Part shown: in pieces, positions 13,758 to 32,060 of the stretch
Layout of the letters: the number at the start of each line of letters is the position of its first letter
Numbering within the stretch: the stretch's first letter is position 1
Assembly (NCBI GenBank): GCA_007693955.1
Contig: RECR01000089.1
Location: forward strand, 1 to 47,480
DNA length: 47,480 nt
Direction: 5' to 3'
Origin: Gloeocapsa sp. DLM2.Bin57
GTDB taxonomy: Bacteria > Cyanobacteriota > Cyanobacteriia > Cyanobacteriales > Gloeocapsaceae
Position numbers and translations under genes: made by a program
The notes under the pieces: model-generated
Seen by the model: the letters and a program-made list of their open reading frames with translations, nothing else
The model's database searches: none
Told to the model about the DNA's origin: nothing

Positions 13758-13795
13758 AGCATTAGTAAAAGTTTGTTGGATTGAATAAAGAGAAA

Positions 13796-14059
13796 ATGAT
13801 GTCAGAAGAAATCAAAAATATGTCTAACAATTTTACTCAAACTTTCCGTGTTAGCCCCTCTCAAGCGGTTGTTATTGGTTTGGGTACAATTGTTCTTGCT
13901 CCTACTGTGTTATCTTTACTAAAACCTGTTGCTAAAGCTACTCTCAAAACTGGAGTTGTTTTTTACGAAAAAACTAAAGCTAATCTGGCTGAAACTTCAG
14001 AAGTCATTGGCGATATCATCGCTGAAGCTAAAGCCGAAGTAATCGAAGAACAAAAATAA
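13796..14059 (+). CDS. DUF5132-like small membrane-associated protein
   Basis: The protein is 87 residues from ATG 13796 (an in-frame TTG lies at 13781; AAAGAG just upstream favours the ATG). A hydrophobic segment SQAVVIGLGTIVLAPTVLSLL is followed by KPVAKATLKTGVVFYEKTKA and an acidic helix EVIGDIIAEAKAEVIEE. This is the pattern of DUF5132 proteins, which I know as neighbours of HMA-domain/P1B-ATPase genes. A similar protein lies in exactly that context at 17073-17363. This copy stands alone, 3.2 kb from the ATPase operon. It may belong to the same function. Confidence 0.6.
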   Translation: MMSEEIKNMSNNFTQTFRVSPSQAVVIGLGTIVLAPTVLSLLKPVAKATLKTGVVFYEKTKANLAETSEVIGDIIAEAKAEVIEEQK

Positions 14060-15859: not shown

Positions 15860-15895
15860 TTGACATCCTCCCGGAATCTTTAGGTCGGGGATTCT
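15860..15895 (-). repeat. IS200/IS605-family right end
   Basis: On the minus strand, GAATC (15894-15890) and GATTC (15878-15874) flank CCCCGACCTAAA. CCGGGAGGATGTCAAC then runs to the junction with the PIN gene. This GGGAGGATGTCAA-type ending is typical of cyanobacterial tnpB-carrying elements. The tnpB stop lies inside the hairpin. Confidence 0.7.
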
Positions 15896-16659
15896 GAACA
15901 GACAATTGCTTGTCCGTTTATCCACTCAAACAGACTTAGCTGTAGAGGGTTCTTAGGCTCAACAACTAACGCCATTGAGATTTCCTGACTATTTCTAGCC
16001 AAACCTGTTAGTTCAGGTTTAAGCGTGACTTCCTGAGTAACTCCCAGTAGCTTGGACAAACCTAGTCCAAGAAGTTCTAATCCTTTCTTGCCTATATTAA
16101 TTGCAGCTTGATTGTCAGCATCAGCTATGAACCCACAATTAGTACAAGTAAATTTTTCTTTTACCCTACTTGCAGAATCAACATGACCACAATTAGAACA
16201 GGTTTGAGACGTGAATTTAGGGTTAACTTCTAATACGATACAACCAAACTTTTCAGCTACAGATTGTATCTTTAATTTCAAGTTGCCCCAGGAACAATCT
16301 CTAATCAACCTATTTAAAGCTTGTTTTGCTGCTTGATTATTCTTAATGTATTTGCCTGCCTCATTTTGTTTAGGTGAGCATCTTTTGCTCATACCCTTAA
16401 CATTTAAATCTTCCAATATAATTACATCAGCTAATCTAACTAGTCTATTTGCTACTTTCCATTGGTAATCATCCCTTTGGTTAACTATTTTTTGGTCAAT
16501 TTTAGCTAATCTTTGATATGCTTTTTTCTGATTACTTGACCCTCTTTTTTTACGACTAGCTCGACGTTGTCTAATTCTTTTAACTCGCTCTAGTTGTTTC
16601 TCAAACTGTGGGTTACTTATTTGTTCCCCATTGCTTAGAGCAACTAGCTTTTTAATCCC
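15880..16659 (-). pseudogene. tnpB: TnpB (IS605 type), N-terminally truncated
   Basis: The open frame from about 16659 encodes roughly the last 260 residues of a TnpB RNA-guided nuclease. It begins GIKKLVALSNGEQ, just past the point where the RuvC-I aspartate should be. The bridge region (RASRKKRGSSNQKKAYQRLA) follows. Then come the RuvC-II Glu in IILEDLNVKGMS, the zinc ribbon CSNCGH...CTNCGF, and the RuvC-III Asp in DADNQAAINI. The N-terminal wedge/REC half and the first catalytic Asp are gone. The break falls inside the antitoxin gene. An ATG at 16416 could make a 178-residue C-terminal piece only. The protein would be nuclease-dead. Confidence 0.8.
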
Positions 16660-17072: not shown

Positions 17073-17363
17073 CTACTTATTTAGATGTACTAAACCGTTT
17101 TTCTCACTAGAGTAAGGAGTTGGTAAAAATTTAAGCTTTGTTGGCTGTGGAGAGACTTTGTTGTCTTCTAACAAAGATATACCACTTTTAATAATAGCTT
17201 TGAGAATAGGACGACCTAATTTCACTGATGCAGGAACAATAGTAGTACCTAATAAAATTAATCCTAATCCCGCTAAAGCTGTAGTGTCACCTGATTTGTA
17301 ATCGTCTAGTATTTCTTTAAGATGGAAACTTACTACCGATCTATCCCAATGAACAATTGACAT
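17073..17363 (-). CDS. DUF5132-like membrane-associated protein, last gene of the iron/P-ATPase operon
   Basis: The protein has 96 residues from ATG 17363, which is set by a good AGGAG 8 nt upstream. The frame extends to a TTG at 17447, but that part overlaps the true end of the ferritin-like gene. A hydrophobic segment ALAGLGLILLGTTIVPASV is followed by RPILKAIIKSGISLLED, matching the DUF5132-type layout of the protein at 13796. The tail is basic and proline rich. Small hydrophobic proteins of this sort accompany HMA/P1B-ATPase genes. In a ferrosome-like system such a protein could coat or anchor the compartment, but that is inference. Confidence 0.65.
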   Translation of the reverse strand: MSIVHWDRSVVSFHLKEILDDYKSGDTTALAGLGLILLGTTIVPASVKLGRPILKAIIKSGISLLEDNKVSPQPTKLKFLPTPYSSEKNGLVHLNK

Positions 17364-17371
17364 GATTTTTT

Positions 17372-17376
17372 CTCCT
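17372..17376 (-). promoter_or_regulatory. Ribosome binding site fixing the start of the DUF5132-like gene
   Basis: AGGAG, 8 nt before ATG 17363. It favours this start over the upstream in-frame TTG at 17447. Confidence 0.65.
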
Positions 17377-17421
17377 GGTGCAATTGCTACTAATTCTAAC
17401 AAATCTTGAGAAAAGTTCTTA

Positions 17422-17899
17422 TTAACTTTGACAGGGTTTTGAGACAAGACGATGTTTACCGTGACGGTGTCGATGACCTTTTGAGCGGGAGAATTGGTGT
17501 GTTTCTCCTACACAACGAGAGAAAGCGCGAAGGTGATTTTCAAAGAGAAGCTCTTTTTAGATTGAGAAAGACGCGTTGTACATCAGGATATTCCGTGGTT
17601 AGAGCTAATAATCTGTTAGACATTATTTCATTTTCTCTTTCGGCGATAACACCTTGTTGACAAGCTTCTAAGACGGAATCAGGTGCAGTTACTCGCTCTG
17701 CCCAATTATCGATAGGAATAGTCAAATTATACTTGCGAAAAAGTCGCACTAACGCCTGAATGTGTCTTTCTTCCGATTGGACAATATTAATGAATGGTCG
17801 AATTGGTGCAAATTTTTCGATAACGAGACTATAAGTCGCACGAGCTTTATATTCGTCTTGGATTGCTTCTACAAGTGCTTTTTCGAGCTTATTTAACAT
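17422..17899 (-). pseudogene. Ferritin-like diiron protein (DUF2202-like) with a frameshift near the C-terminus
   Basis: The first frame (17899 to stop at 17540, 119 residues) is a ferritin-like four-helix protein: EAIQDEYKARATY (helix 1 Glu), SEERHIQALVRLF (ExxH) and AERENEIMSNRL (helix 3 Glu). It stops at LNLKRASL. In the next frame the sequence goes on as FENHLRAFSRCVGE, which is how this family continues after RAS. One base too many near 17541-17549 therefore explains the early stop. The shifted frame ends at TAA 17422-17424. The lost segment carries the NHLRAF histidine, so metal binding would be impaired. It overlaps the ATPase gene by 11 nt. A sequencing error is possible. Confidence 0.75.
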
Positions 17900-20015
17900 A
17901 ATTTTCGATTTGATGTTGAGCTAAAGGTCGTAAACTATTCAAACCTGCGGCGATCGCTGTACCATTATGAATAGTAGTAGCCAAAAGAGGGTTAAGTCCG
18001 ACGGTAGAGGCTAAACCCAAAGCGAGTAAATTAGGACCTACTACCAATAGTATATTTTGGTCGATGAGATTTCTGGTTTCTCTAGCGATCGCGATAGCTT
18101 CGAGAATGCTATTAAGGTTATTATTCATTAGAACCACGTCTGCTGTTTCTCTAGCTACTTCTGAACCATGAGCAAAAGAGATAGAGACGTCAGCATAAGC
18201 TAAAGCTACTGAGTCATTGAGTCCATCTCCTACAAAAGCGACTGTTCTTCCTGAGCGATGTAAATCGCGGACAATTTGCGCTTTTTGTTCGGGGAAAGCT
18301 TCCGCATATACTTGAGTTTTGGGAATATTGAGAGCATGGGCTACTTGCATAGCGCGTTCTTGATTATCTCCTGTTAATAAATGAACAGATATTCCCCAAT
18401 CTTGTTGTAGCTTAGTAATCAGGGCTGAACTTTCAGGACGCAAGGGATCAGCGTATTGGATAACTCCTTGAAACTGACCATCACAAGCCACGTAGATTAG
18501 AGATAGTTCTTCACCAGAGTAGGAAAATCCCTCTAAGTCTATATCTTGTTGTTTCAGGAATCTTTCACTACCTATTAACACGGTTTTACCCGCGATCGTC
18601 GCTGTCATACCTAACCCTACGCTATATTCCCAATTTTCCCGAGGGAGAATTTCTATACCTTGATCTTGAGCAAAAACGGCGATCGCTTCAGCGAGAGGGT
18701 GAGTTATGCGCTGTTCTGCTGATGCTGCTAACTGTAATAAATCATGCTCTGATAGTCTTCCTGCTACGGTTTGGATACCTACTACTACTACTTCTCCTCG
18801 GGTGAGAGTACCTGTTTTATCAAAAACGAAGGTATCTATTTCTGAGAGTAACTCTAGGGTGCGTCCACTACGTACTAAAATACCATGTCTGGTAATATGA
18901 TTTAATGCTCCTAGAAAAGCGGTAGGGATAGATACTCTAATTCCCGTGACAAAGTCGAGGGTAAGAATAGAAGCAACTCTACTAGGATCTCGGGTTGTTA
19001 CCCAAACCAATCCCGCCCAAGTCAGAGAGGGTATAATCAGTTTATCGGCTAGTTTAGCTGCATAATTAGCCATACGGGTATCATGAACTGGAGCTTTTTG
19101 CAGTAATTCCCAACTAGCTGCAGCGCGGGTTTGATAACCGACTTTTTCGGTAGAAATATGGATTTGACCTGAACGTAACAGGGTAGAAGCATAGACATAA
19201 GTTCCCGTTTGAGCGACAATAGGCATCGATTCCCCTGTAAGTTGTTGTTGATCGATGGTTGCTTCTCCTTTGAGCACTACTCCATCTACGGGAATCTGTT
19301 CACCTGGATAGACTATGACTATCTCTTCGGGAATAACGCAGTCACTGTTGATTTGGATAAGTTTTCCTTCTCTTTCTACCCAAGCATAACGCCCAATGGT
19401 GTCTAGTAACTCGGCAGTTTGTCTTTCTGTAGCTCTAGCGGTGCGATCGCGGATTAAGTCTCCTAATTCATGAAGAGTTATCATCAGTGCAGGGGTAATC
19501 AATCTTCCCTGTAAACCGCTAAAAACAATCGCTAACAAGTCTAAACAGTCAATATTGAGTTTTTGCTCTCGAAAGATGTTGTTAACAGCTCTTTGCGCTA
19601 CAGGAAGGGTAGCAGCGATAAGTGAAGCGATCGCCCCTACACGTAAAAAAGGTAGTCCGAGTTGCCTACTTGTTACAGCAAGACTGACAGCTACGAGAGG
19701 AAGGGTAAGACTCGACCATTCTTCCTCTTGTAGTTTGGGTGAAGAAGATAAAGAGGAGGGTTTTTGACCAGCTTCGGCTAAAATTTCCTGTAATTGTGGA
19801 ATAATATCCTGATTTTCCCTTTGATGATAATGAATCACCACCGAAGTTGCCCAAGTATTAATCCGAAACTTTTTAATCCATGTTTCTGCTGTTAATAATT
19901 CTACCAAACGATTAGTAAAGGCTTTATTTTCCAACAGAGGAACTCTTAATCTTAACCTTCCTGGTAAGATATGGATAACTTCTGATTGAGATTCTAATAC
20001 AAGTCCTGTCATCAT
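17889..20015 (-). CDS. P1B-type heavy-metal ATPase without CPx motif (possible P1B-6/FezB-like)
   Basis: This 708-residue P-type ATPase has a complete core: TGES (260-263), phosphorylated Asp399 in DKTGTLT, ITHPLAEA (the P1B HP motif) and VGDGLNDSVAL. The transmembrane site normally reading CPC/SPC is GIRVSIPTA (358-366), with no cysteine. The N-terminus has no metal-binding CxxC HMA. It has an HMA-like fold with HILPGRLRLRV (15-25), a basic GRxRxR motif. These traits fit the P1B group found beside iron genes, of which ferrosome FezB is the member I recall. The operon neighbours are a double FeoA, an HMA-like protein, a ferritin-like protein and a DUF5132-like protein. Iron is the most likely substrate, but this is inferred. 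Confidence 0.85.
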   Translation of the reverse strand: MMTGLVLESQSEVIHILPGRLRLRVPLLENKAFTNRLVELLTAETWIKKFRINTWATSVVIHYHQRENQDIIPQLQEILAEAGQKPSSLSSSPKLQEEEWSSLTLPLVAVSLAVTSRQLGLPFLRVGAIASLIAATLPVAQRAVNNIFREQKLNIDCLDLLAIVFSGLQGRLITPALMITLHELGDLIRDRTARATERQTAELLDTIGRYAWVEREGKLIQINSDCVIPEEIVIVYPGEQIPVDGVVLKGEATIDQQQLTGESMPIVAQTGTYVYASTLLRSGQIHISTEKVGYQTRAAASWELLQKAPVHDTRMANYAAKLADKLIIPSLTWAGLVWVTTRDPSRVASILTLDFVTGIRVSIPTAFLGALNHITRHGILVRSGRTLELLSEIDTFVFDKTGTLTRGEVVVVGIQTVAGRLSEHDLLQLAASAEQRITHPLAEAIAVFAQDQGIEILPRENWEYSVGLGMTATIAGKTVLIGSERFLKQQDIDLEGFSYSGEELSLIYVACDGQFQGVIQYADPLRPESSALITKLQQDWGISVHLLTGDNQERAMQVAHALNIPKTQVYAEAFPEQKAQIVRDLHRSGRTVAFVGDGLNDSVALAYADVSISFAHGSEVARETADVVLMNNNLNSILEAIAIARETRNLIDQNILLVVGPNLLALGLASTVGLNPLLATTIHNGTAIAAGLNSLRPLAQHQIENYVK

Positions 20016-20018
20016 CTA

Positions 20019-20588
20019 CTAAATTTGATTATTTTCTACACCAGGAGAGGTGATTGTTTCTTCTGCTTCTGCTCTACTGATAATATTCAATAGCTGCATA
20101 CCTAATTCCATTTCTGATGCTCCCGAGGCTTCATAATTAATTGCTACTGAAGCTGCGGCTTGATTTACTCTAACTTTGAGTACATATTCATTTTCGTTGA
20201 GTAATCTTTCTAACCGTTTAGCAAATAAGGTGTCATCCCTTAAACGTTCAATCTTTAAACGGATTCTTCCAGGTACTGAATGAATAATGCTATAACCTTG
20301 AGCAATTTCGTTGTTTTGCTTTTGGTTATTCTCTTCTGGTGGTGTTGTGGTTGATTCTGTTTGAGTTTTTTTAAGCTGTTGAAAAATTTGTCGAGATATT
20401 CCCGCGATTAACAAATTAGCCAACAAAGCGTTAGCGCCTCTTAATCCTAAACGACTAGTAGCAAATATGCCAATTACCACAGGTAGAATCATCTCAATTT
20501 CTTGATGTTCTTGTAAAAATTCGGCTACTTTAGCTTCTGTTGCTTCTTCGGTTTGATTGTTTAATGTTGATACGGTTAATTCAGTCAT
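20019..20588 (-). CDS. HMA-like domain protein with PGRIRLKI motif
   Basis: The protein has 189 residues. An in-frame ATG at 20600 precedes the chosen ATG 20588, but AGGAG lies between the two with correct spacing for 20588. The N-terminal half has a possible membrane helix pair (MILPVVIGIFATSRLGL and GANALLANLLIAGIS). The C-terminal half is an HMA-like domain without cysteines: YSIIHSVPGRIRLKIERL, then YVLKVRVNQAAASVAINY. The same HxxPGRxRL signature starts the ATPase encoded 3 nt downstream. The two domains may interact. The start overlaps the FeoA gene by 8 nt. Confidence 0.75.
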   Translation of the reverse strand: MTELTVSTLNNQTEEATEAKVAEFLQEHQEIEMILPVVIGIFATSRLGLRGANALLANLLIAGISRQIFQQLKKTQTESTTTPPEENNQKQNNEIAQGYSIIHSVPGRIRLKIERLRDDTLFAKRLERLLNENEYVLKVRVNQAAASVAINYEASGASEMELGMQLLNIISRAEAEETITSPGVENNQI

Positions 20589-21165
20589 TTTTCTCCTCAT
20601 CTACTGTTTCAACTACGAGAGCGTCTGCTTCTTGTTTGCGTAAACTTAGGTGAAATCCATTGAGTAGGATATCAATTGGGTGACCCATTGAACCTACCTT
20701 AAGCACGGTAAATTCTGCTCCTGGAGTTAATCCCATCGAAACTAATTTTCCTCTGTAACCCCATCTCGCCTTGTCGTACCCTACAACTATACATCTTGTA
20801 CCCTCTGGCATTTCTCCTAAGAATGTTTTGATATTGCTTTCTGCTGTAAAAGGTTCATCTCTAACCCAAACTTTTTGAGCTAATCCTGCTCCTATACCGA
20901 TTTGCTTATTGTTCATTTTTACTACAACTGAACCACTTGGTTGACGGCTAACTATTGTTACTTCCATCCCCGTAGTTAATCCCATTGATAAGAGATGCTC
21001 CATGCTTTTTTTTCCTTGAGATCCAATTAACCAGACTCGTTTACCTATTGCAGCTTCTGCTAAGGGGTAACCAGATCCAGGATTTACCCCTTCTTCTTGC
21101 TCACTAGATCCACCAAAGTAAGAAAAACTCCAACTTTGCTGACTGTCATTTATCTGCCAATCCAT
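20581..21165 (-). CDS. feoA: Tandem FeoA-domain protein
   Basis: This 194-residue protein has two FeoA-type SH3-like domains at about 33-103 and 110-186. Each has the core HLLSMGLTTGMEVTIV or KLVSMGLTPGAEFTVL. The first 32 residues are polar and unrelated. FeoA domains normally assist FeoB in ferrous iron uptake, but no feoB lies here. The next genes are an HMA-like protein and a P1B ATPase. It is the first gene of a five-gene minus-strand operon with overlaps throughout. A link to iron is therefore well grounded, though its direct partner is not known. Confidence 0.85.
   Translation of the reverse strand: MDWQINDSQQSWSFSYFGGSSEQEEGVNPGSGYPLAEAAIGKRVWLIGSQGKKSMEHLLSMGLTTGMEVTIVSRQPSGSVVVKMNNKQIGIGAGLAQKVWVRDEPFTAESNIKTFLGEMPEGTRCIVVGYDKARWGYRGKLVSMGLTPGAEFTVLKVGSMGHPIDILLNGFHLSLRKQEADALVVETVDEEKND
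20593..20597 (-). promoter_or_regulatory. Ribosome binding site deciding the HMA-like gene start
   Basis: AGGAG lies 4 nt before ATG 20588 and inside the alternative ORF start ATG 20600. It shows that the downstream ATG is the likely start. Confidence 0.6.
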
Positions 21166-21650
21166 TTAACCACCTTTTTGCTAGTTATTTTTAATAAATT
21201 TTTTCTGTAAAAATTGATAATCGTGAGAATATCGGTCTTGATTGGCTCAAATGCCTACCAAAACATGATTTTTTCGAGTGTAGCATTAAACTACTTGCTA
21301 ACTCGAGTAATAACTAATTAGTAATTATTCTCAAGTATATCTTAAGATTATACCTAAAGGAAGCAAAATTTTCCTTAAGAATTTCTTAAATATGAAATCT
21401 AGTTAAATCTTAAGGTTTTTTCTAGAATTGTCTATCGAATCACTGATCTATACTAAAGTTAGTGAGCAAAAGTATGGCTCTCCCTATATTTAGGTTGATA
21501 AGCATTCACTTACTATAGAGAAAAGGGAAGAGGGAAGAGGTAAAAGGGAAAAAAGTGTAATTTTGTCAGGAGTGCGCTTTCGCACCGCAGAGACAACTTA
21601 ACTCCTACCGAAAGAGCTTGTTATTTTAAATCTACACGAGGAAAGTAGAA
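21166..21650. other. 485-bp divergent intergenic region
   Basis: This is the shared promoter region of the iron operon (-) and the phytochrome operon (+). It is AT-rich, with four TCTTAAG-like words between 21343 and 21420. A partial Fur-like half-site TTGATAAT lies at 21214-21221, without a convincing mirror half. A purine-rich stretch (21520-21555) resembles the core of the dispersed repeat, and a small GTGCGC/GCAC hairpin lies near 21571-21586. I see no gene and no clear promoter hexamers. Confidence 0.4.
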
Positions 21651-23936
21651 ATGGTACAATTGAATTATTCTAGCCAAGAATCCGAGAACTTGGCTTATAC
21701 AGGAAATGAAACTATTCCCCAACAGCATCTGATTCAACCCCACGGGGTGTTAATGGTATTAAGTGAACCAGAATTAACTATAGTACAAATCACAGCCAAT
21801 GCTTCTAGACTATTTGGTCTAAGATTAGAAGATATACTAGGTCAAACCCTAGACGACTTATTAGATCCATTTCAAACAGAAGGAATTAAACAGGGATTAG
21901 CTCAAGATAATCTAGACTTTATCAATCCTACCAAAGTATGGGCAAGAAAAAGCGGAGATGAATACGTAGTTTTTGACGCGGTTTTCCATCGTAATAGTGA
22001 CGGTTTATTGATTTTAGAACTAGAACCCGCTTTCGCTCAAGAAAATATCCCCTTTTTAAGTTTCTATCACTTAGCTAAAGCATCCATCAAGCAACTTCTC
22101 GAAACAGTTAACTTAAAACAATTCTGTGAAGTAATCGTTAAAGAAGTGCGCAAAGTAACAGAATTTGACCGCGTGATGTTGTACAAATTTGCAGCAGATG
22201 GACACGGAGTAGTCCTAGCTGAAGAAAAAGTACCAGAATTAGAACCCTATCTAGGTTTACACTATCCCGAATCAGATATACCCCCAGCTGCGCGTAAATT
22301 ATTCGCTTCTAACTGGATTCGCTTAATTCCCGATAGTCACGCAGAAGGAGTTGGTTTAGTCAAAGCAGCTGATGATCAAGAAAATAACCCTCTAGACTTA
22401 ACCCATTCTATCCTGAGAAGTGCATCTGGTTGTCACTTAGAGTACTTGCACAATATGGGTGTAGGAGCATCTCTAACTATCTCCTTAATTAAAGACGAGA
22501 AACTCTGGGGTTTAATCGCTTGTCACCATCGTACACCTAAATACGTACCTTACGAATTGCGTAAAGCTTGCGAATTTTTAGGACAAGTCATCTTCTCAGA
22601 AATATCAGCAAGAGAAGAAACAGAAGACTATAACTATCGGATGAAATTAACTTATATACAAACAGCGTTGATAGACTATATGTCTAACGATGAAAGTTTT
22701 ATTGAAGGGTTGACCAAACATCAACCTAACCTGTTAGAGTTAACTAGTGCTAAAGGTGCAGCGATTCTGTTTGGTAATAAATGGACGGTTATCGGTAAAG
22801 TTCCCTCAGAAGAGGATTTAAACCTATTAGTGCTATGGTTACGTAAAAACGTCGATGGAGAGGTATTTTATACCGATTCCTTGGCGAGAGTTTATCCCGA
22901 CGCAGATAAATATAAAGACTTAGGTAGTGGTTTATTGGCTATACCGATATCTAGTAAAAACTTCGTCTTGTGGTTCAGACCAGAAGTTATTCAGACTGTC
23001 AATTGGGGAGGTAATCCTAATCACGCTTACGAAGCTAAACATAAAGAAGGTAACCTAAAACTATCTCCGCGTAAATCCTTTGAACTGTGGAAAGAAACAG
23101 TTAGACTAAAATCTTTATCTTGGCAACAAGTAGAAATTAAAGCCGCTTTAGAATTAAGAAAGGCTATTATCAATATTATTCTACGCCAAGCCGATGAATT
23201 AGCGCAACTAGCCCACGATTTAGAAAGATCTAACTCAGAATTGAAAAAATTCGCCTATGTAGCTTCTCATGATTTACAAGAACCTTTAAATCAAGTAGCT
23301 AACTATGTACAGTTACTAGAGATGCGCTATAACAGTCAACTAGATACAGACGCTAAAGAATTTATCGGTTACGCGGTAGAAGGGGTAAGTCTGATGCAAA
23401 CCCTGATAGACGACGTTTTAGCCTATTCTCGCGTTGATACCCAAGCGATCGAATTTGAACTAACCGATGTCCAAACACCCCTAGAAATGGCTTTAGGTAA
23501 CCTCAGAAGACGCATTAAAGATAATCAAGCTGTCATTACTTCTGAACCACTACCAACGGTTATGGCTGATAAAACTCAGTTAATGCAGTTATTCCAAAAC
23601 TTAATCGCTAATGCGATCAAATTCCGCAGCGACGCGGCACCTAAAATTCAGATCAGTGCAACTAGACTAGAAGAAGAGTGGTTATTCTCTGTAGAAGATA
23701 ATGGAATTGGTATAGATCCCCAATTTTCAGAACGAATCTTTATTATCTTCCAAAGATTACACACCCGAGATGAATACCCAGGTACAGGTATGGGTTTAGC
23801 AATTTGTAAAAAAATAGTAGAATGTCACCGAGGTCAAATCTGGGTAGAATCAGAGTTAGATCAAGGGGCAAAATTCTATTTTACTATTCCAGTAGGAGGA
23901 CGCGATCGTGAGCTTAGAAGAGGGCGAAAAGCTTAA
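21651..23936 (+). CDS. Phytochrome-type sensor histidine kinase (Cph1-like)
   Basis: This 761-residue red/far-red light sensor has PAS (about 20-125), GAF (145-315), PHY (330-500), HisKA and HATPase domains. Cys261 in SGCHLEYLHNMG is the cyanobacterial bilin attachment site, and ESDIPPAARKLF holds the DIP motif (209-211). No N-terminal Cys of the bacteriophytochrome type is present. The PHY tongue has WFRPE and SPRKSFELW. His540 in ASHDLQEP is the phospho-acceptor. The Asn box is NLIANAIKF and the G boxes are DNGIGID and GTGMGLAIC. It should bind phycocyanobilin. The C-terminal 29 nt overlap the Rcp-like gene. Confidence 0.93.
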   Translation: MVQLNYSSQESENLAYTGNETIPQQHLIQPHGVLMVLSEPELTIVQITANASRLFGLRLEDILGQTLDDLLDPFQTEGIKQGLAQDNLDFINPTKVWARKSGDEYVVFDAVFHRNSDGLLILELEPAFAQENIPFLSFYHLAKASIKQLLETVNLKQFCEVIVKEVRKVTEFDRVMLYKFAADGHGVVLAEEKVPELEPYLGLHYPESDIPPAARKLFASNWIRLIPDSHAEGVGLVKAADDQENNPLDLTHSILRSASGCHLEYLHNMGVGASLTISLIKDEKLWGLIACHHRTPKYVPYELRKACEFLGQVIFSEISAREETEDYNYRMKLTYIQTALIDYMSNDESFIEGLTKHQPNLLELTSAKGAAILFGNKWTVIGKVPSEEDLNLLVLWLRKNVDGEVFYTDSLARVYPDADKYKDLGSGLLAIPISSKNFVLWFRPEVIQTVNWGGNPNHAYEAKHKEGNLKLSPRKSFELWKETVRLKSLSWQQVEIKAALELRKAIINIILRQADELAQLAHDLERSNSELKKFAYVASHDLQEPLNQVANYVQLLEMRYNSQLDTDAKEFIGYAVEGVSLMQTLIDDVLAYSRVDTQAIEFELTDVQTPLEMALGNLRRRIKDNQAVITSEPLPTVMADKTQLMQLFQNLIANAIKFRSDAAPKIQISATRLEEEWLFSVEDNGIGIDPQFSERIFIIFQRLHTRDEYPGTGMGLAICKKIVECHRGQIWVESELDQGAKFYFTIPVGGRDRELRRGRKA

Positions 23937-24354
23937 ACTCATTTTCCTAGTAGAGGACAATAAAGCTGATGTTCGTCTGATTGAAGAAGCTTTAAAAAAT
24001 AGCGTTGTACCTCATGAAATCGTAGCGGTCAAAAATGGGGTGGAAGCAATGGCGTACTTACGTCAAGAAGGTGAGTACGCCGACGCTCGACGTCCTGATA
24101 TTATTCTGTTAGACTTGAATTTACCCCGTAAAGACGGTCGAGAAGTGTTAGCAGAAATTAAAGCAGATCCCCAACTCAAACGTATTCCTGTAGTAGTTTT
24201 AACAACCTCAAAGAACGAAGATGATATCTTTCACAGCTACGATTTACACGTAAACTGTTATATCACTAAATCTCGGAATTTGAGTCAGTTGTTTGAGATA
24301 GTTAAAGGAATTGAGGAATTCTGGCTCAAGACTGTTACTCTACCATTAGATTAG
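23908..24354 (+). CDS. Rcp1-like single-domain response regulator
   Basis: This 148-residue CheY-like receiver has acidic pair EDN (16-18), phosphorylated Asp69 in IILLDLNLP, Thr/Ser in VVLTTSKNEDD, and Lys in CYITKSRN. It has the long loop after Asp typical of Rcp1-type regulators (PRKDGREVLAEIK). It starts with GTG inside the end of the phytochrome gene, a 29-nt overlap, so translation is coupled. It is the expected phosphate acceptor of the upstream kinase. No output domain is present. Confidence 0.9.
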   Translation: MSLEEGEKLKLIFLVEDNKADVRLIEEALKNSVVPHEIVAVKNGVEAMAYLRQEGEYADARRPDIILLDLNLPRKDGREVLAEIKADPQLKRIPVVVLTTSKNEDDIFHSYDLHVNCYITKSRNLSQLFEIVKGIEEFWLKTVTLPLD

Positions 24355-24443
24355 TTAAGAGGGAAAGATTGGGAAATTTTCCTCTCTTTTTTCTTGATAT
24401 ATACTCCCGAGTTAGTGAAGAAGGGGAGCAAAGTAAAGAAACC

Positions 24444-25598
24444 ATGTTGACAAGTTCAGTAAAAATCTTGTTGATTGAGGATAACTTGGCTGAAGCGAGA
24501 TTATTACATGAGATTCTCAAAGATGCCAATGGTAATACTTTTACGCTAGTTCATGTACAGCGTTTAAAAGAGGCGATCGAACTCATTAAGAGTGACAATT
24601 TCGATGTGATCTTATTAGATTTAACTCTACCAGATAGTCAGGGTTTAGCTTCTCTAATACCCTTGAACTGTTATGCTCCTAGTATTCCTGTGGTAGTACT
24701 TACTAATACTAATGATGACAGGTTAGCCCTAGAAGCAGTTCGTCAAGGTGCGCAAGATTATTTAATCAAAAGACAAGTTAACTTACATTCTTTAGTACGC
24801 TCTCTCTATTATGCCATTGAGAGAAAACAAAGCGCAGAAAATCTCCGTAAAGCTCATGAACATCTTAGCCAAGAAGTACAAAAACAAAAAGAGGATTTAA
24901 TCAAAGCACAAGAGATAAATCAACTTAGAGCAGAATTAGTATCGATGATTTCTCATGACTTTCGCAATCCTCTAACCACTATTCTACTCTCTACAGGACT
25001 ACTTGAAGACCATGAGCAAAAATTAACCCCTGAACAAAAGATTAGACAATATCAACGCATTCGTGACGCGATTAAAAATTTAACAGGTTTACTCGATGAA
25101 ATCTTATTAGTAGGTAAAGCTGAAGCGGGTAGATTAGATTGTGACCTAATGTCTTTACCTTTAGAACCATTTTGTCGTCAATTACTCGAAGAGTTGGAAT
25201 TAACTCTCAATAGTCAGCATAAAGTGGTTTTTATCAGTGAAGGTGAGTTAAATTCGGGTTTGTGGGATGAACAGCTACTTAAACATATTTTATATAACTT
25301 ACTTTCTAACGCGATTAAATATTCTCCTGATGGAGGAGTAGTGATATTAAATCTTCAACGTCAAGGAGAAATAGTAATCATGGAGATTAAAGATCAAGGG
25401 ATTGGTATCCCTGAAATAGATTTACACGCTTTATTTGAACCCTTTCACCGTGGTGATAATGTGGACAATATCCCGGGAACAGGTTTAGGTTTAGCAATTG
25501 TTAAAAATTGTGTGCAGGTTCATGGGGGTACAATAGAGGTAGTTAGTCAATTGGGAGTGGGGACAACTTTTACAGTTACCTTACCCTATCTTACGTGA
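24444..25598 (+). CDS. Receiver-histidine kinase hybrid
   Basis: The protein has 384 residues from ATG 24444. The frame extends to a TTG at 24369 with GAGGG before it, so that start cannot be excluded, but the extra 25 residues look unlike domain sequence. The N-terminal receiver (about 5-125) has EDN and Asp59 in VILLDLTLP. A coiled coil (about 128-165) leads to HisKA with His171 in SMISHDFRNP, then a HATPase domain (NLLSNAIKYS, DQGIGIP, GTGLGLAIV). A receiver ahead of the kinase suggests it is itself controlled by phosphorylation, perhaps from the phytochrome encoded just upstream. Confidence 0.85.
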   Translation: MLTSSVKILLIEDNLAEARLLHEILKDANGNTFTLVHVQRLKEAIELIKSDNFDVILLDLTLPDSQGLASLIPLNCYAPSIPVVVLTNTNDDRLALEAVRQGAQDYLIKRQVNLHSLVRSLYYAIERKQSAENLRKAHEHLSQEVQKQKEDLIKAQEINQLRAELVSMISHDFRNPLTTILLSTGLLEDHEQKLTPEQKIRQYQRIRDAIKNLTGLLDEILLVGKAEAGRLDCDLMSLPLEPFCRQLLEELELTLNSQHKVVFISEGELNSGLWDEQLLKHILYNLLSNAIKYSPDGGVVILNLQRQGEIVIMEIKDQGIGIPEIDLHALFEPFHRGDNVDNIPGTGLGLAIVKNCVQVHGGTIEVVSQLGVGTTFTVTLPYLT

Positions 25599-30410: not shown

Positions 30411-32060
30411 CTATTTCGAGCCTTTGGACTTGGATTTACTATGTACCTGCTTGTGACACGCTTTGTGTAGGTGGACTAGATTCACCGCGTCGTCAGTTCC
30501 TCCATCCTTAACAGGTACTATGTGATGGATTTCTATTTTTTCTCCATTGAATAAGGATTCTCCACAAACAGTACATCTCCACATTTGTTCTTTGGCTATC
30601 AGTTCATACTTAGAACCTTTCGCCCAGTATAATTTTCCTGTTTTTTCTCTGCGTTTAATCCAATACTCTCGGAGCGAAGCATCATCAGGTGACGCATCAC
30701 CTTTGACCTTTACATGCCTCATAATTGGTGTACTAGCAAGCTTGTAGAGTACAATGAGTTTTTCATCACCTTCCCTTCTTCCTGCTCCACGACACATAAA
30801 TGTCCAACTATCTCCTTTATAGAAATGAAAGTATTTATTCTTAACCCATTTTAATCGTCTTTTTAGGTGCTTACGCTTGCACCAGTTCCAGAGGTATTTA
30901 TAGACCCTATAATCTATGTAGCTAAAGGTTTCTTTACTAATTACTCCTCGATAATAATTAGCAAAACCACGAAGAAGGGGATTGATGGCTTTAATTAAAT
31001 CCTCTTGAGTGGCAGCTTTCATACTGTTAATGGTCTTCCCGACCTTTTTACAGAATTCTAATACTTTCTGCTTCATTGGTTTAATCAATAGCTTGCCACC
31101 ATAATGGCGTAGGTTGAATCCGAGAAAATCGAAACCTTCATCAATATGGGCTATCCTTGTCTTCTCCTCGCTGATACTTAGACCTTTCTCTGACATCCAT
31201 TGCTTTATCTGGACTAGTACTTTTTCCAAAGATTCTTTATCTCTTGCTGTCACAACAAAGTCGTCTGCATACCTGATGATGCCTAGCTTTGGGTTGTATT
31301 CTTTTATGGATTCCTCCAACCCGTGCAATCCAATATTAGCTAATAGAGGACTTATAACACCACCTTGAGGCGTACCAGTTTCTGTTGGGAATAACTTCCC
31401 GCCGTCCATAAATCCAGCTTTTAACCATTCCTTAATAAGTTCACCATGTGGTATTGAACCTACTTCTTTGAGAACAGATTCATGGGCAATATTATCAAAG
31501 AAACCTTTAATATCCGCATCTAGAACCCATCTATCTTTTGAGCGTGCGTGTAATCTGTTGAAACATTGCTCTATAGCATCTTGGCAGCTTCTTCCTGGTC
31601 TAAACCCATAGGAGTTTCCCTCGAAGACTGCTTCCCATTCTGGCTCCAGATAATTTTTAACTATTGCTTGTGCGACTCTATCCCTTACGGTTGGGATTCC
31701 TAGGGGACGTTTCTTCCCGTTTTTTTTAGGTATATAAACCCGTCGCGTGGGTTTTGCTGTCGCCATTTCCCAGTTATTCACAAGTTTTACTCTGTCGTCA
31801 GGTGTTATTATTACCTCCTTATCTACACCTGCAGTACCTTTGCCTTGGTTCACTTGAGTAATTTGTCTAACACTCAGCAATAGATTTGCGTAACTACGTA
31901 ACATCAACTTCTGCAGTCTTCTTAGCTGCTTCCATTGACCAAGTCTTCTAGCACGAAAGATTCTTTGTCTTAGATTCTTAACAGCTTTTCTTACCGCCTT
32001 CCAATTAACTTCCGACCAGTCTTTCAGCTGTTTGGTTTCTCCATTTATAACGTGTGTCAT
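30411..32060 (-). CDS. ltrA: Group II intron reverse transcriptase/maturase with HNH endonuclease domain
   Basis: This 549-residue intron-encoded protein is needed for splicing and retrohoming. RT blocks include VYIPKKNGKKRPLGIPTVRD (108-127), FEGNSYGFRPGRS, VLDADIKGFFDN, GTPQGGVISPLL and the active-site YADD (264-267). The maturase X domain covers about 340-430 (LRGFANYYRGV). The C-terminus is an HNH nuclease with CTVCGESLFNGEKIEIHHI and NLVHLHKACHKQVH, so all zinc and metal residues are present. It is full length and should be active. The ORF lies in intron domain IV and ends 6 nt from domain V. Confidence 0.95.
   Translation of the reverse strand: MTHVINGETKQLKDWSEVNWKAVRKAVKNLRQRIFRARRLGQWKQLRRLQKLMLRSYANLLLSVRQITQVNQGKGTAGVDKEVIITPDDRVKLVNNWEMATAKPTRRVYIPKKNGKKRPLGIPTVRDRVAQAIVKNYLEPEWEAVFEGNSYGFRPGRSCQDAIEQCFNRLHARSKDRWVLDADIKGFFDNIAHESVLKEVGSIPHGELIKEWLKAGFMDGGKLFPTETGTPQGGVISPLLANIGLHGLEESIKEYNPKLGIIRYADDFVVTARDKESLEKVLVQIKQWMSEKGLSISEEKTRIAHIDEGFDFLGFNLRHYGGKLLIKPMKQKVLEFCKKVGKTINSMKAATQEDLIKAINPLLRGFANYYRGVISKETFSYIDYRVYKYLWNWCKRKHLKRRLKWVKNKYFHFYKGDSWTFMCRGAGRREGDEKLIVLYKLASTPIMRHVKVKGDASPDDASLREYWIKRREKTGKLYWAKGSKYELIAKEQMWRCTVCGESLFNGEKIEIHHIVPVKDGGTDDAVNLVHLHKACHKQVHSKSKSKGSK

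What the first reader, a model, noticed from the sequence alone, without database searches (positions are those of the whole stretch)
17073..21165. Candidate ferrosome-like iron operon in a cyanobacterium
Five overlapping or nearly abutting genes encode a double FeoA, a cysteine-free HMA-like protein, a P1B ATPase with GIRVSIPTA in place of CPx and an N-terminal PGRLRLRV motif, a ferritin-like protein and a DUF5132-like hydrophobic protein. There is no feoB. Known: P1B-6 ATPases cluster with Feo and ferritin-like genes, and FezB of ferrosomes is a P1B-6 ATPase. Inferred: this operon loads iron into a membrane-bounded store or exports it to one.
Basis: partly seen in the sequence, partly recalled or inferred. 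Interest (0 to 1): 0.75.

Follow-up and report, generated by a model that had tools for sequence, protein, structure and literature searches.

The report
Cyanobacterial cousin of ferrosome genes
A cyanobacterium carries an iron-gene cluster built from the same protein families as the operons that make iron-storage organelles (ferrosomes) in other bacteria, but its metal pump comes from a sister branch with a different metal-binding motif, so cyanobacteria may have their own version of this organelle or pump.

Summary
The minus-strand genes at 17073-21165 encode a FeoA-FeoA protein, a Cys-free HMA_2 protein, a P1B ATPase with an HMA_2 N-terminus and FVTGIRVSIP in place of CPx, a DUF2202 ferritin-like protein and a DUF5132-like membrane protein. 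A true DUF5132 gene lies convergent at 13781-14059. The ferritin-like gene carries a 1-nt frameshift relative to its relatives.

In related cyanobacteria the module adjoins feoA, feoB, feoC and ferritin, so iron is well supported. Rooted trees place the ATPase beside the FezB clade (100/99). That clade holds the FezB of a genome I identify as Desulfovibrio magneticus RS-1. The ATPase lies outside the FezB clade, and it also lies outside the Cu, Zn and CtpC-like groups.

Profiles built only from cyanobacterial loci find relatives in fez operons, including D. magneticus FezA and FezC. They find nothing beside 59 other P1B ATPases.

This is therefore a fez-related iron cluster whose pump is a sister lineage lacking the FezB TM4 Cys. 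Instead it has a Cys157/His182/His683 set that its feo-less paralogues lack. That iron is pumped into a membrane-bounded compartment is inferred by analogy. No organelle has been shown, and export of Fe(II) is not excluded.

The parts
20581..21165 (-). FeoA-FeoA tandem-domain protein, 194 aa; first gene of the operon
   Evidence: Pfam FeoA, two stretches, 8e-30; double FeoA also in relatives L175 and L190
20019..20600 (-). Cys-free HMA_2 protein, 193 aa, with an N-terminal hydrophobic segment (ILPVVIGIFATSRLGLRGANALLANLLIAG) followed by HMA_2 (HSVPGRIRLKI)
   Evidence: Pfam HMA_2 3.5e-9; family profile hits D. magneticus FezC at 9e-9; profile-profile 98.6%
17889..20015 (-). P1B-type ATPase, 708 aa, HMA_2 N-terminus, DKTGT phosphorylation motif, TM4 DFVTGIRVSIP, TM6 HNGT, sister clade to FezB
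   Evidence: Pfam and NCBIfam; trees; AlphaFold2 model mean pLDDT 83.5, best PDB matches P1B ATPases
17540..17899 (-). DUF2202 ferritin-like protein, 119 aa as read; a 1-nt frameshift near 17545 separates it from a homologous C-terminal part that reads on to about 17422
   Evidence: Pfam DUF2202 7e-6; alignment with relatives and the +1 frame
17073..17363 (-).
   Evidence: Conserved start MSLIHWDKSVL in relatives; profile-profile with DUF5132 96%
13781..14059 (+). DUF5132 protein, 92 aa, convergent with the operon; FezA/YtxH-related family
   Evidence: Pfam DUF5132 6.3e-13; convergent neighbour of the same module in L039, L042, L053, L183, L184, L186, L188, L189; family profile hits D. magneticus FezA at 1e-4
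21305..21333 (.). Imperfect palindrome with a Fur-box-like half site TGAGAATAATT upstream of the first gene (tentative)
   Evidence: similar matches upstream of feoA in several relatives; for the window alone the match is not significant (6% of shuffles reach it)

Best explanation
A cyanobacterial iron cluster homologous in composition to fez (ferrosome) operons. Inferred working: when iron supply changes, FeoA-type proteins tune Fe(II) entry through FeoB encoded elsewhere. The HMA_2/TGIR-type P-type ATPase then uses ATP to move Fe(II) out of the cytosol across an internal membrane into a membrane-bounded compartment. The DUF5132/FezA-type membrane proteins and the HMA_2 protein help form that membrane or dock onto the pump, and the DUF2202 protein oxidises or buffers iron. 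Shown here: gene families, linkage to Feo and ferritin, sister relationship of the pump to FezB, and shared accessory families with fez operons. Inferred: the substrate Fe(II), the direction of transport and the organelle.
For: Feo/ferritin linkage: feoA/feoB beside the module in most of the close relatives, and in L040, L041, L053, L174, L175 and L190 as one block with ferritin, DUF2202 or feoC. Tree with KdpB as outgroup: window clade + FezB clade 100/99, CtpC-like next, then Zn/Cd and Cu pumps; FezB of the D. magneticus genome lies inside the FezB clade. That genome: 5,248,049-bp contig, magnetochrome genes, operon FezA (86 aa), FezB, FezC (HMA_2 plus two TM). Profiles trained only on cyanobacterial loci hit accessory genes in 10 (HMA_2), 6 (DUF5132/YtxH), 3 (DUF2202) and 4 (FeoA) of 17 FezB-type loci, and none near 59 other P1B ATPases; they also hit D. 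magneticus FezC (9e-9) and FezA (1e-4). A Pseudothauera fez-type locus (L065) has HMA_2, DUF2202, YtxH, FezB, feoA, feoA, feoB and feoC together. In the Feo-linked cyanobacterial clade Cys157/His182/His683 occur together; in the clade without feo they are Phe/Ile/Asn.
Against: The pump is not a FezB orthologue and lacks the Cys of the FezB TM4 motif. The DUF2202 gene is frameshifted here and present in few relatives (5 of 27 loci). No heme-binding DUF4405-like FezC domain was found in the window cluster. Same-genus genomes lack the pump. No experiment.
Confidence: 0.5

Rival explanations
1. Fe(II) efflux or detoxification pump: the ATPase exports excess Fe(II) from the cytosol to the periplasm (or thylakoid lumen) with no organelle; FeoA and the small proteins are regulators or assembly factors.
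For: Topology of any P1B ATPase is export from the cytosol (established knowledge); iron linkage; P1B-type Fe(II) exporters are known in other subgroups, for example P1B-5 Ni/Fe (PMC7558416).
Against: The accessory set (HMA_2, DUF5132/YtxH, DUF2202) is that of fez operons and is absent beside the 59 other P1B pumps tested.
Confidence: 0.3
2. The cluster delivers Fe(II) to an extracytoplasmic protein or thylakoid-lumen site, so it is a metallation route rather than a store.
For: Restricted to phototrophs for this clade; Feo linkage.
Against: Non-cyanobacterial members of the same TGIR clade exist (Deinococcus, Desulfobacteraceae, Rhodospirillales), so photosynthesis is not a general explanation.
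Confidence: 0.1
3. The pump carries another ion (Ca, Mg, Mn, Zn) and the Feo neighbours are incidental.
For: TM4 has no Cys or Pro; a second cyanobacterial clade of the same subfamily has no Feo neighbours and different candidate ligands.
Against: Repeated feoA/feoB/feoC/ferritin linkage in the window's clade, and sister relation to FezB.
Confidence: 0.1

Closest known systems
fez (ferrosome) operon, fezABC of Desulfovibrio magneticus and six-gene fez operons such as R. palustris RPA2333-2338
   Same: P-type ATPase with HMA_2 N-terminus; HMA_2 protein; DUF5132/YtxH-related small membrane protein; frequent FeoA and sometimes DUF2202 and FeoB neighbours
   Different: The ATPase is in a sister clade with T and R instead of C and K in TM4; no DUF4405-like cytochrome domain seen; the HMA_2 protein has its hydrophobic part N-terminal rather than C-terminal; no organelle shown
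P1B-6 ATPases (FezB subgroup)
   Same: Nearest relatives in rooted trees; shared D[FY] before the TM4 site and HNG in TM6
   Different: TM4 DFVTGIRVSIP rather than DYSCALKLATP; candidate ligands Cys157 and His182 in M1/M2 instead
Feo ferrous-iron uptake system
   Same: FeoA domains; in relatives the module sits beside feoA, feoB and feoC
   Different: No feoB in this operon; FeoB is on another contig
CtpC-like, ZntA and CopA P1B ATPases
   Same: P1B core fold
   Different: All fall outside the FezB plus window clade with full support; none of 59 such loci carries the accessory genes

Membership tests
Ferrosome (fez) gene cluster | FezB: P1B-6 ATPase, orthologous to known FezB | tested here: not met
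   Window ATPase is sister to, not inside, the FezB clade (100/98-99); TM4 Cys absent
Ferrosome (fez) gene cluster | FezA-type small membrane protein encoded with the pump | tested here: met
   DUF5132 family profile hits D. magneticus FezA at 1e-4 and fez YtxH proteins (profile-profile 96.7%); in the window it is 3 kb away and convergent, in L040 and L174 directly upstream in the operon
Ferrosome (fez) gene cluster | FezC: HMA_2 plus heme-binding DUF4405-like membrane part | tested here: inconclusive
   HMA_2 part homologous (9e-9); the hydrophobic part of the window protein is N-terminal and no DUF4405 match was found. FezC heme binding: PMC10979944
Ferrosome (fez) gene cluster | Genes are required and sufficient for membrane-bounded iron granules | not testable with these tools
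   needs microscopy
P1B-6 ATPase | TM4 SC(A/P)xK-type motif of the FezB clade | tested here: not met
   All 17 FezB-type sequences have a Cys there; window clade has [TS]G[IVL]R
P1B-6 ATPase | Fe(II) as substrate | not testable with these tools
   only genomic linkage to Feo and ferritin
P1B-1, P1B-2 or CtpC-like pumps | Groups with these in a tree; CPC/CPx in TM4 | tested here: not met
Feo operon | feoB adjacent to feoA | tested here: not met
   FeoB at C71, no FeoA beside it; met in many relatives

The most novel reading that the evidence does not exclude
Cyanobacteria make ferrosome-like iron compartments with a separate lineage of pump in which the metal site has moved from the TM4 Cys to Cys157/His182/His683, and a paralogous system with Phe/Ile/Asn at these positions handles another ion.
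Probability: 0.25. Interest if true: 0.85.

Novelty: new variant of a known kind. Interest (0 to 1): 0.58.

Why it matters
Ferrosomes have been shown in a few heterotrophic and anoxygenic bacteria. Cyanobacteria need a great deal of iron and are often iron-limited, and a lipid-bounded iron store in them would change how iron budgets of oxygenic phototrophs are read. The comparison also defines a sister family of FezB that keeps the accessory proteins but lacks the known metal-binding Cys. That makes it a natural test of which residues set metal choice and which accessory proteins build the compartment.

Tried and rejected
Reading the ATPase as a true FezB: rejected by tree and motif. Reading it as a Cu, Zn or CtpC-like exporter: rejected. 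A biased first count of neighbours, with profiles trained partly on fez loci, was replaced by profiles trained on cyanobacteria only. A Fur-box scan with the 19-bp consensus was negative for the window; a 15-bp Fur-like motif recalled from memory is enriched upstream of feoA in several relatives but not significant for the window alone. The published fez papers (Grant 2022; Pi 2023) are not in the library, so their survey of FezB across phyla could not be checked, and the papers that could be searched mention no cyanobacterial ferrosome. Searches for DUF5132, DUF2202 and HMA2 in papers found nothing.
Full report
What is there. Pfam confirms two FeoA domains in the first, HMA_2 in the second, an HMA_2 N-terminus plus a P-type ATPase core in the third, and DUF2202 (a ferritin-like family) in the fourth; the fifth has no Pfam match. 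Four details change. A single extra base near 17545 cuts the ferritin-like ORF: the next frame reads FENHLRAFSRC and a His-rich tail, which relatives carry in frame. The fifth gene more likely starts at ATG 17363. A true DUF5132 gene at 13781-14059 on the other strand faces the operon across about 3 kb that contain a TnpB-like fragment. In L039, L042, L053, L183, L184, L186, L188 and L189 the same two genes also face each other, usually much closer. The genome has its FeoB on contig C71, two other FeoA genes and two ferritin-family genes.

Relatives in cyanobacteria. The pump has relatives at 50% identity or more in about eleven of 40 genomes of the same order, but not in the two other genomes of its genus, and 45 of 386 cyanobacterial genomes carry the subfamily. 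Two cyanobacterial clades appear. In the window's clade the gene set HMA_2 protein, ATPase, DUF5132 and DUF5132-like protein is common, and feoA or feoB is often adjacent; L040, L041, L053, L174, L175 and L190 join it with feoA-feoB and with DUF2202, ferritin or a FeoC-like gene. The second clade has HMA_2 and DUF5132 genes but almost no feo. Aligned to the window, Cys157, His182 and His683 occur together in the first clade and read Phe, Ile, Asn in the second. Feo genes lie within 6 kb of 15 of 26 ATPases with both His and 1 of 28 without, and that one shares its locus with a pump of the first kind. These counts are not independent, because the sequences are related.

Where the pump belongs. 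Plasmid records from Cereibacter, Azospirillum, Arcobacter and Vibrio gave pumps in six-gene or similar operons with HMA_2 and YtxH genes. A genome scan then gave 17 FezB-type pumps with TM4 D[YF][SA]C[AP]x[KR/E]. To anchor them I searched the Desulfovibrionaceae. One genome has a 5,248,049-bp contig, which is the D. magneticus RS-1 chromosome length as I recall it, and magnetochrome genes that only magnetotactic bacteria are known to carry. Its three-gene operon encodes an 86-aa membrane protein, a pump with HMA_2 and SCAIK, and a 146-aa HMA_2 protein with a membrane part and a weak DUF4405 signal. This matches FezA, FezB and FezC, and PMC10979944 reports FezC homology to DUF4405. In three trees the window clade, the FezB clade and the remaining P1B ATPases are each one side of a branch. 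With KdpB as outgroup the window clade and FezB are sisters at 100/99, CtpC-like is next, then Zn/Cd and Cu pumps; the KdpB branch is long, so the root rests on one distant sequence. So the pump is not a FezB and not a Cu, Zn or CtpC-like exporter. Only one of 386 cyanobacterial genomes has a FezB-type pump.

Shared accessory genes. Profiles trained only on cyanobacterial loci were run on 84 other loci. They found HMA_2 proteins in 10, DUF5132/YtxH in 6 (E below 0.003), DUF2202 in 3 and FeoA in 4 of 17 FezB-type loci, and nothing below E 0.05 in 59 loci of other P1B ATPases. On the D. magneticus operon they hit FezC at 9e-9 and FezA at 1e-4. Profile-profile scores are 98.6% for the HMA_2 families and 96.7% for DUF5132 against the YtxH/FezA set. 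L065 (Pseudothauera) carries HMA_2, DUF2202, YtxH, FezB, feoA, feoA, feoB and feoC in a row, nearly the same parts list as the cyanobacterial clusters.

Structure. An AlphaFold2 model (mean pLDDT 83.5) is a P1B-type fold, best PDB matches Cu and Zn P1B ATPases. The M4 helix breaks at 353-355, just before Thr357. By secondary structure Cys157 is near the start of M1, His182 in M2 and His683 in M6. Whether they meet could not be measured because no coordinates were given.

Mechanism. Best supported: a fez-type system in which this pump moves Fe(II) from the cytosol into a membrane-bounded compartment whose membrane proteins are the DUF5132 and HMA_2 families, fed by Feo uptake. Shown: gene families, linkage, kinship. 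Inferred: substrate, direction, compartment. Export of Fe(II) to the periplasm is the main rival.

Novelty and limits. The two primary ferrosome papers could not be read, so it is unknown whether they already list cyanobacterial clusters; the papers that could be searched do not. I rate it a new variant of a known kind.

Noticed in passing
window 17540-17550 -: One-base frameshift in the ferritin-like gene; the downstream frame keeps the conserved ENHLRAF part and a His-rich tail. It could be an assembly error or real decay.
   Followed up: partly
window 21651-25598 +: A phytochrome-type histidine kinase, a response regulator and a second kinase are divergent from the feoA gene, with about 485 bp between.
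   Followed up: no
window 15880-16416 - and 30411-32060 -: TnpB-like zinc-ribbon fragment, and a group II intron-type reverse transcriptase with an HNH domain. The first lies between the operon and its DUF5132 gene.
   Followed up: no
L055 9750-11318; L046 306-2240: ATPase-like HMA_2 proteins of 522 and 644 aa that lack the DKTGT phosphorylation motif, beside the second-clade pumps: possible inactive pump partners.
   Followed up: partly
L188, L189, L193, L180: FeoB seems to be split into a separate G-domain gene (about 190-220 aa) and a membrane-part gene (about 485 aa).
   Followed up: no
L264 (genome G386): The only one of 386 cyanobacterial genomes with a FezB-type pump (E 2.8e-244), perhaps acquired by transfer.
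   Followed up: no
L253 (genome G457) and genomes G602, G608, G649: Tandem pairs of FezB-type ATPases in several Desulfovibrionaceae.
   Followed up: no
L272 1444-1710: A FeoA-like gene lies among nif-associated ferredoxin genes elsewhere in the host genome, which suggests that the host fixes nitrogen.
   Followed up: no
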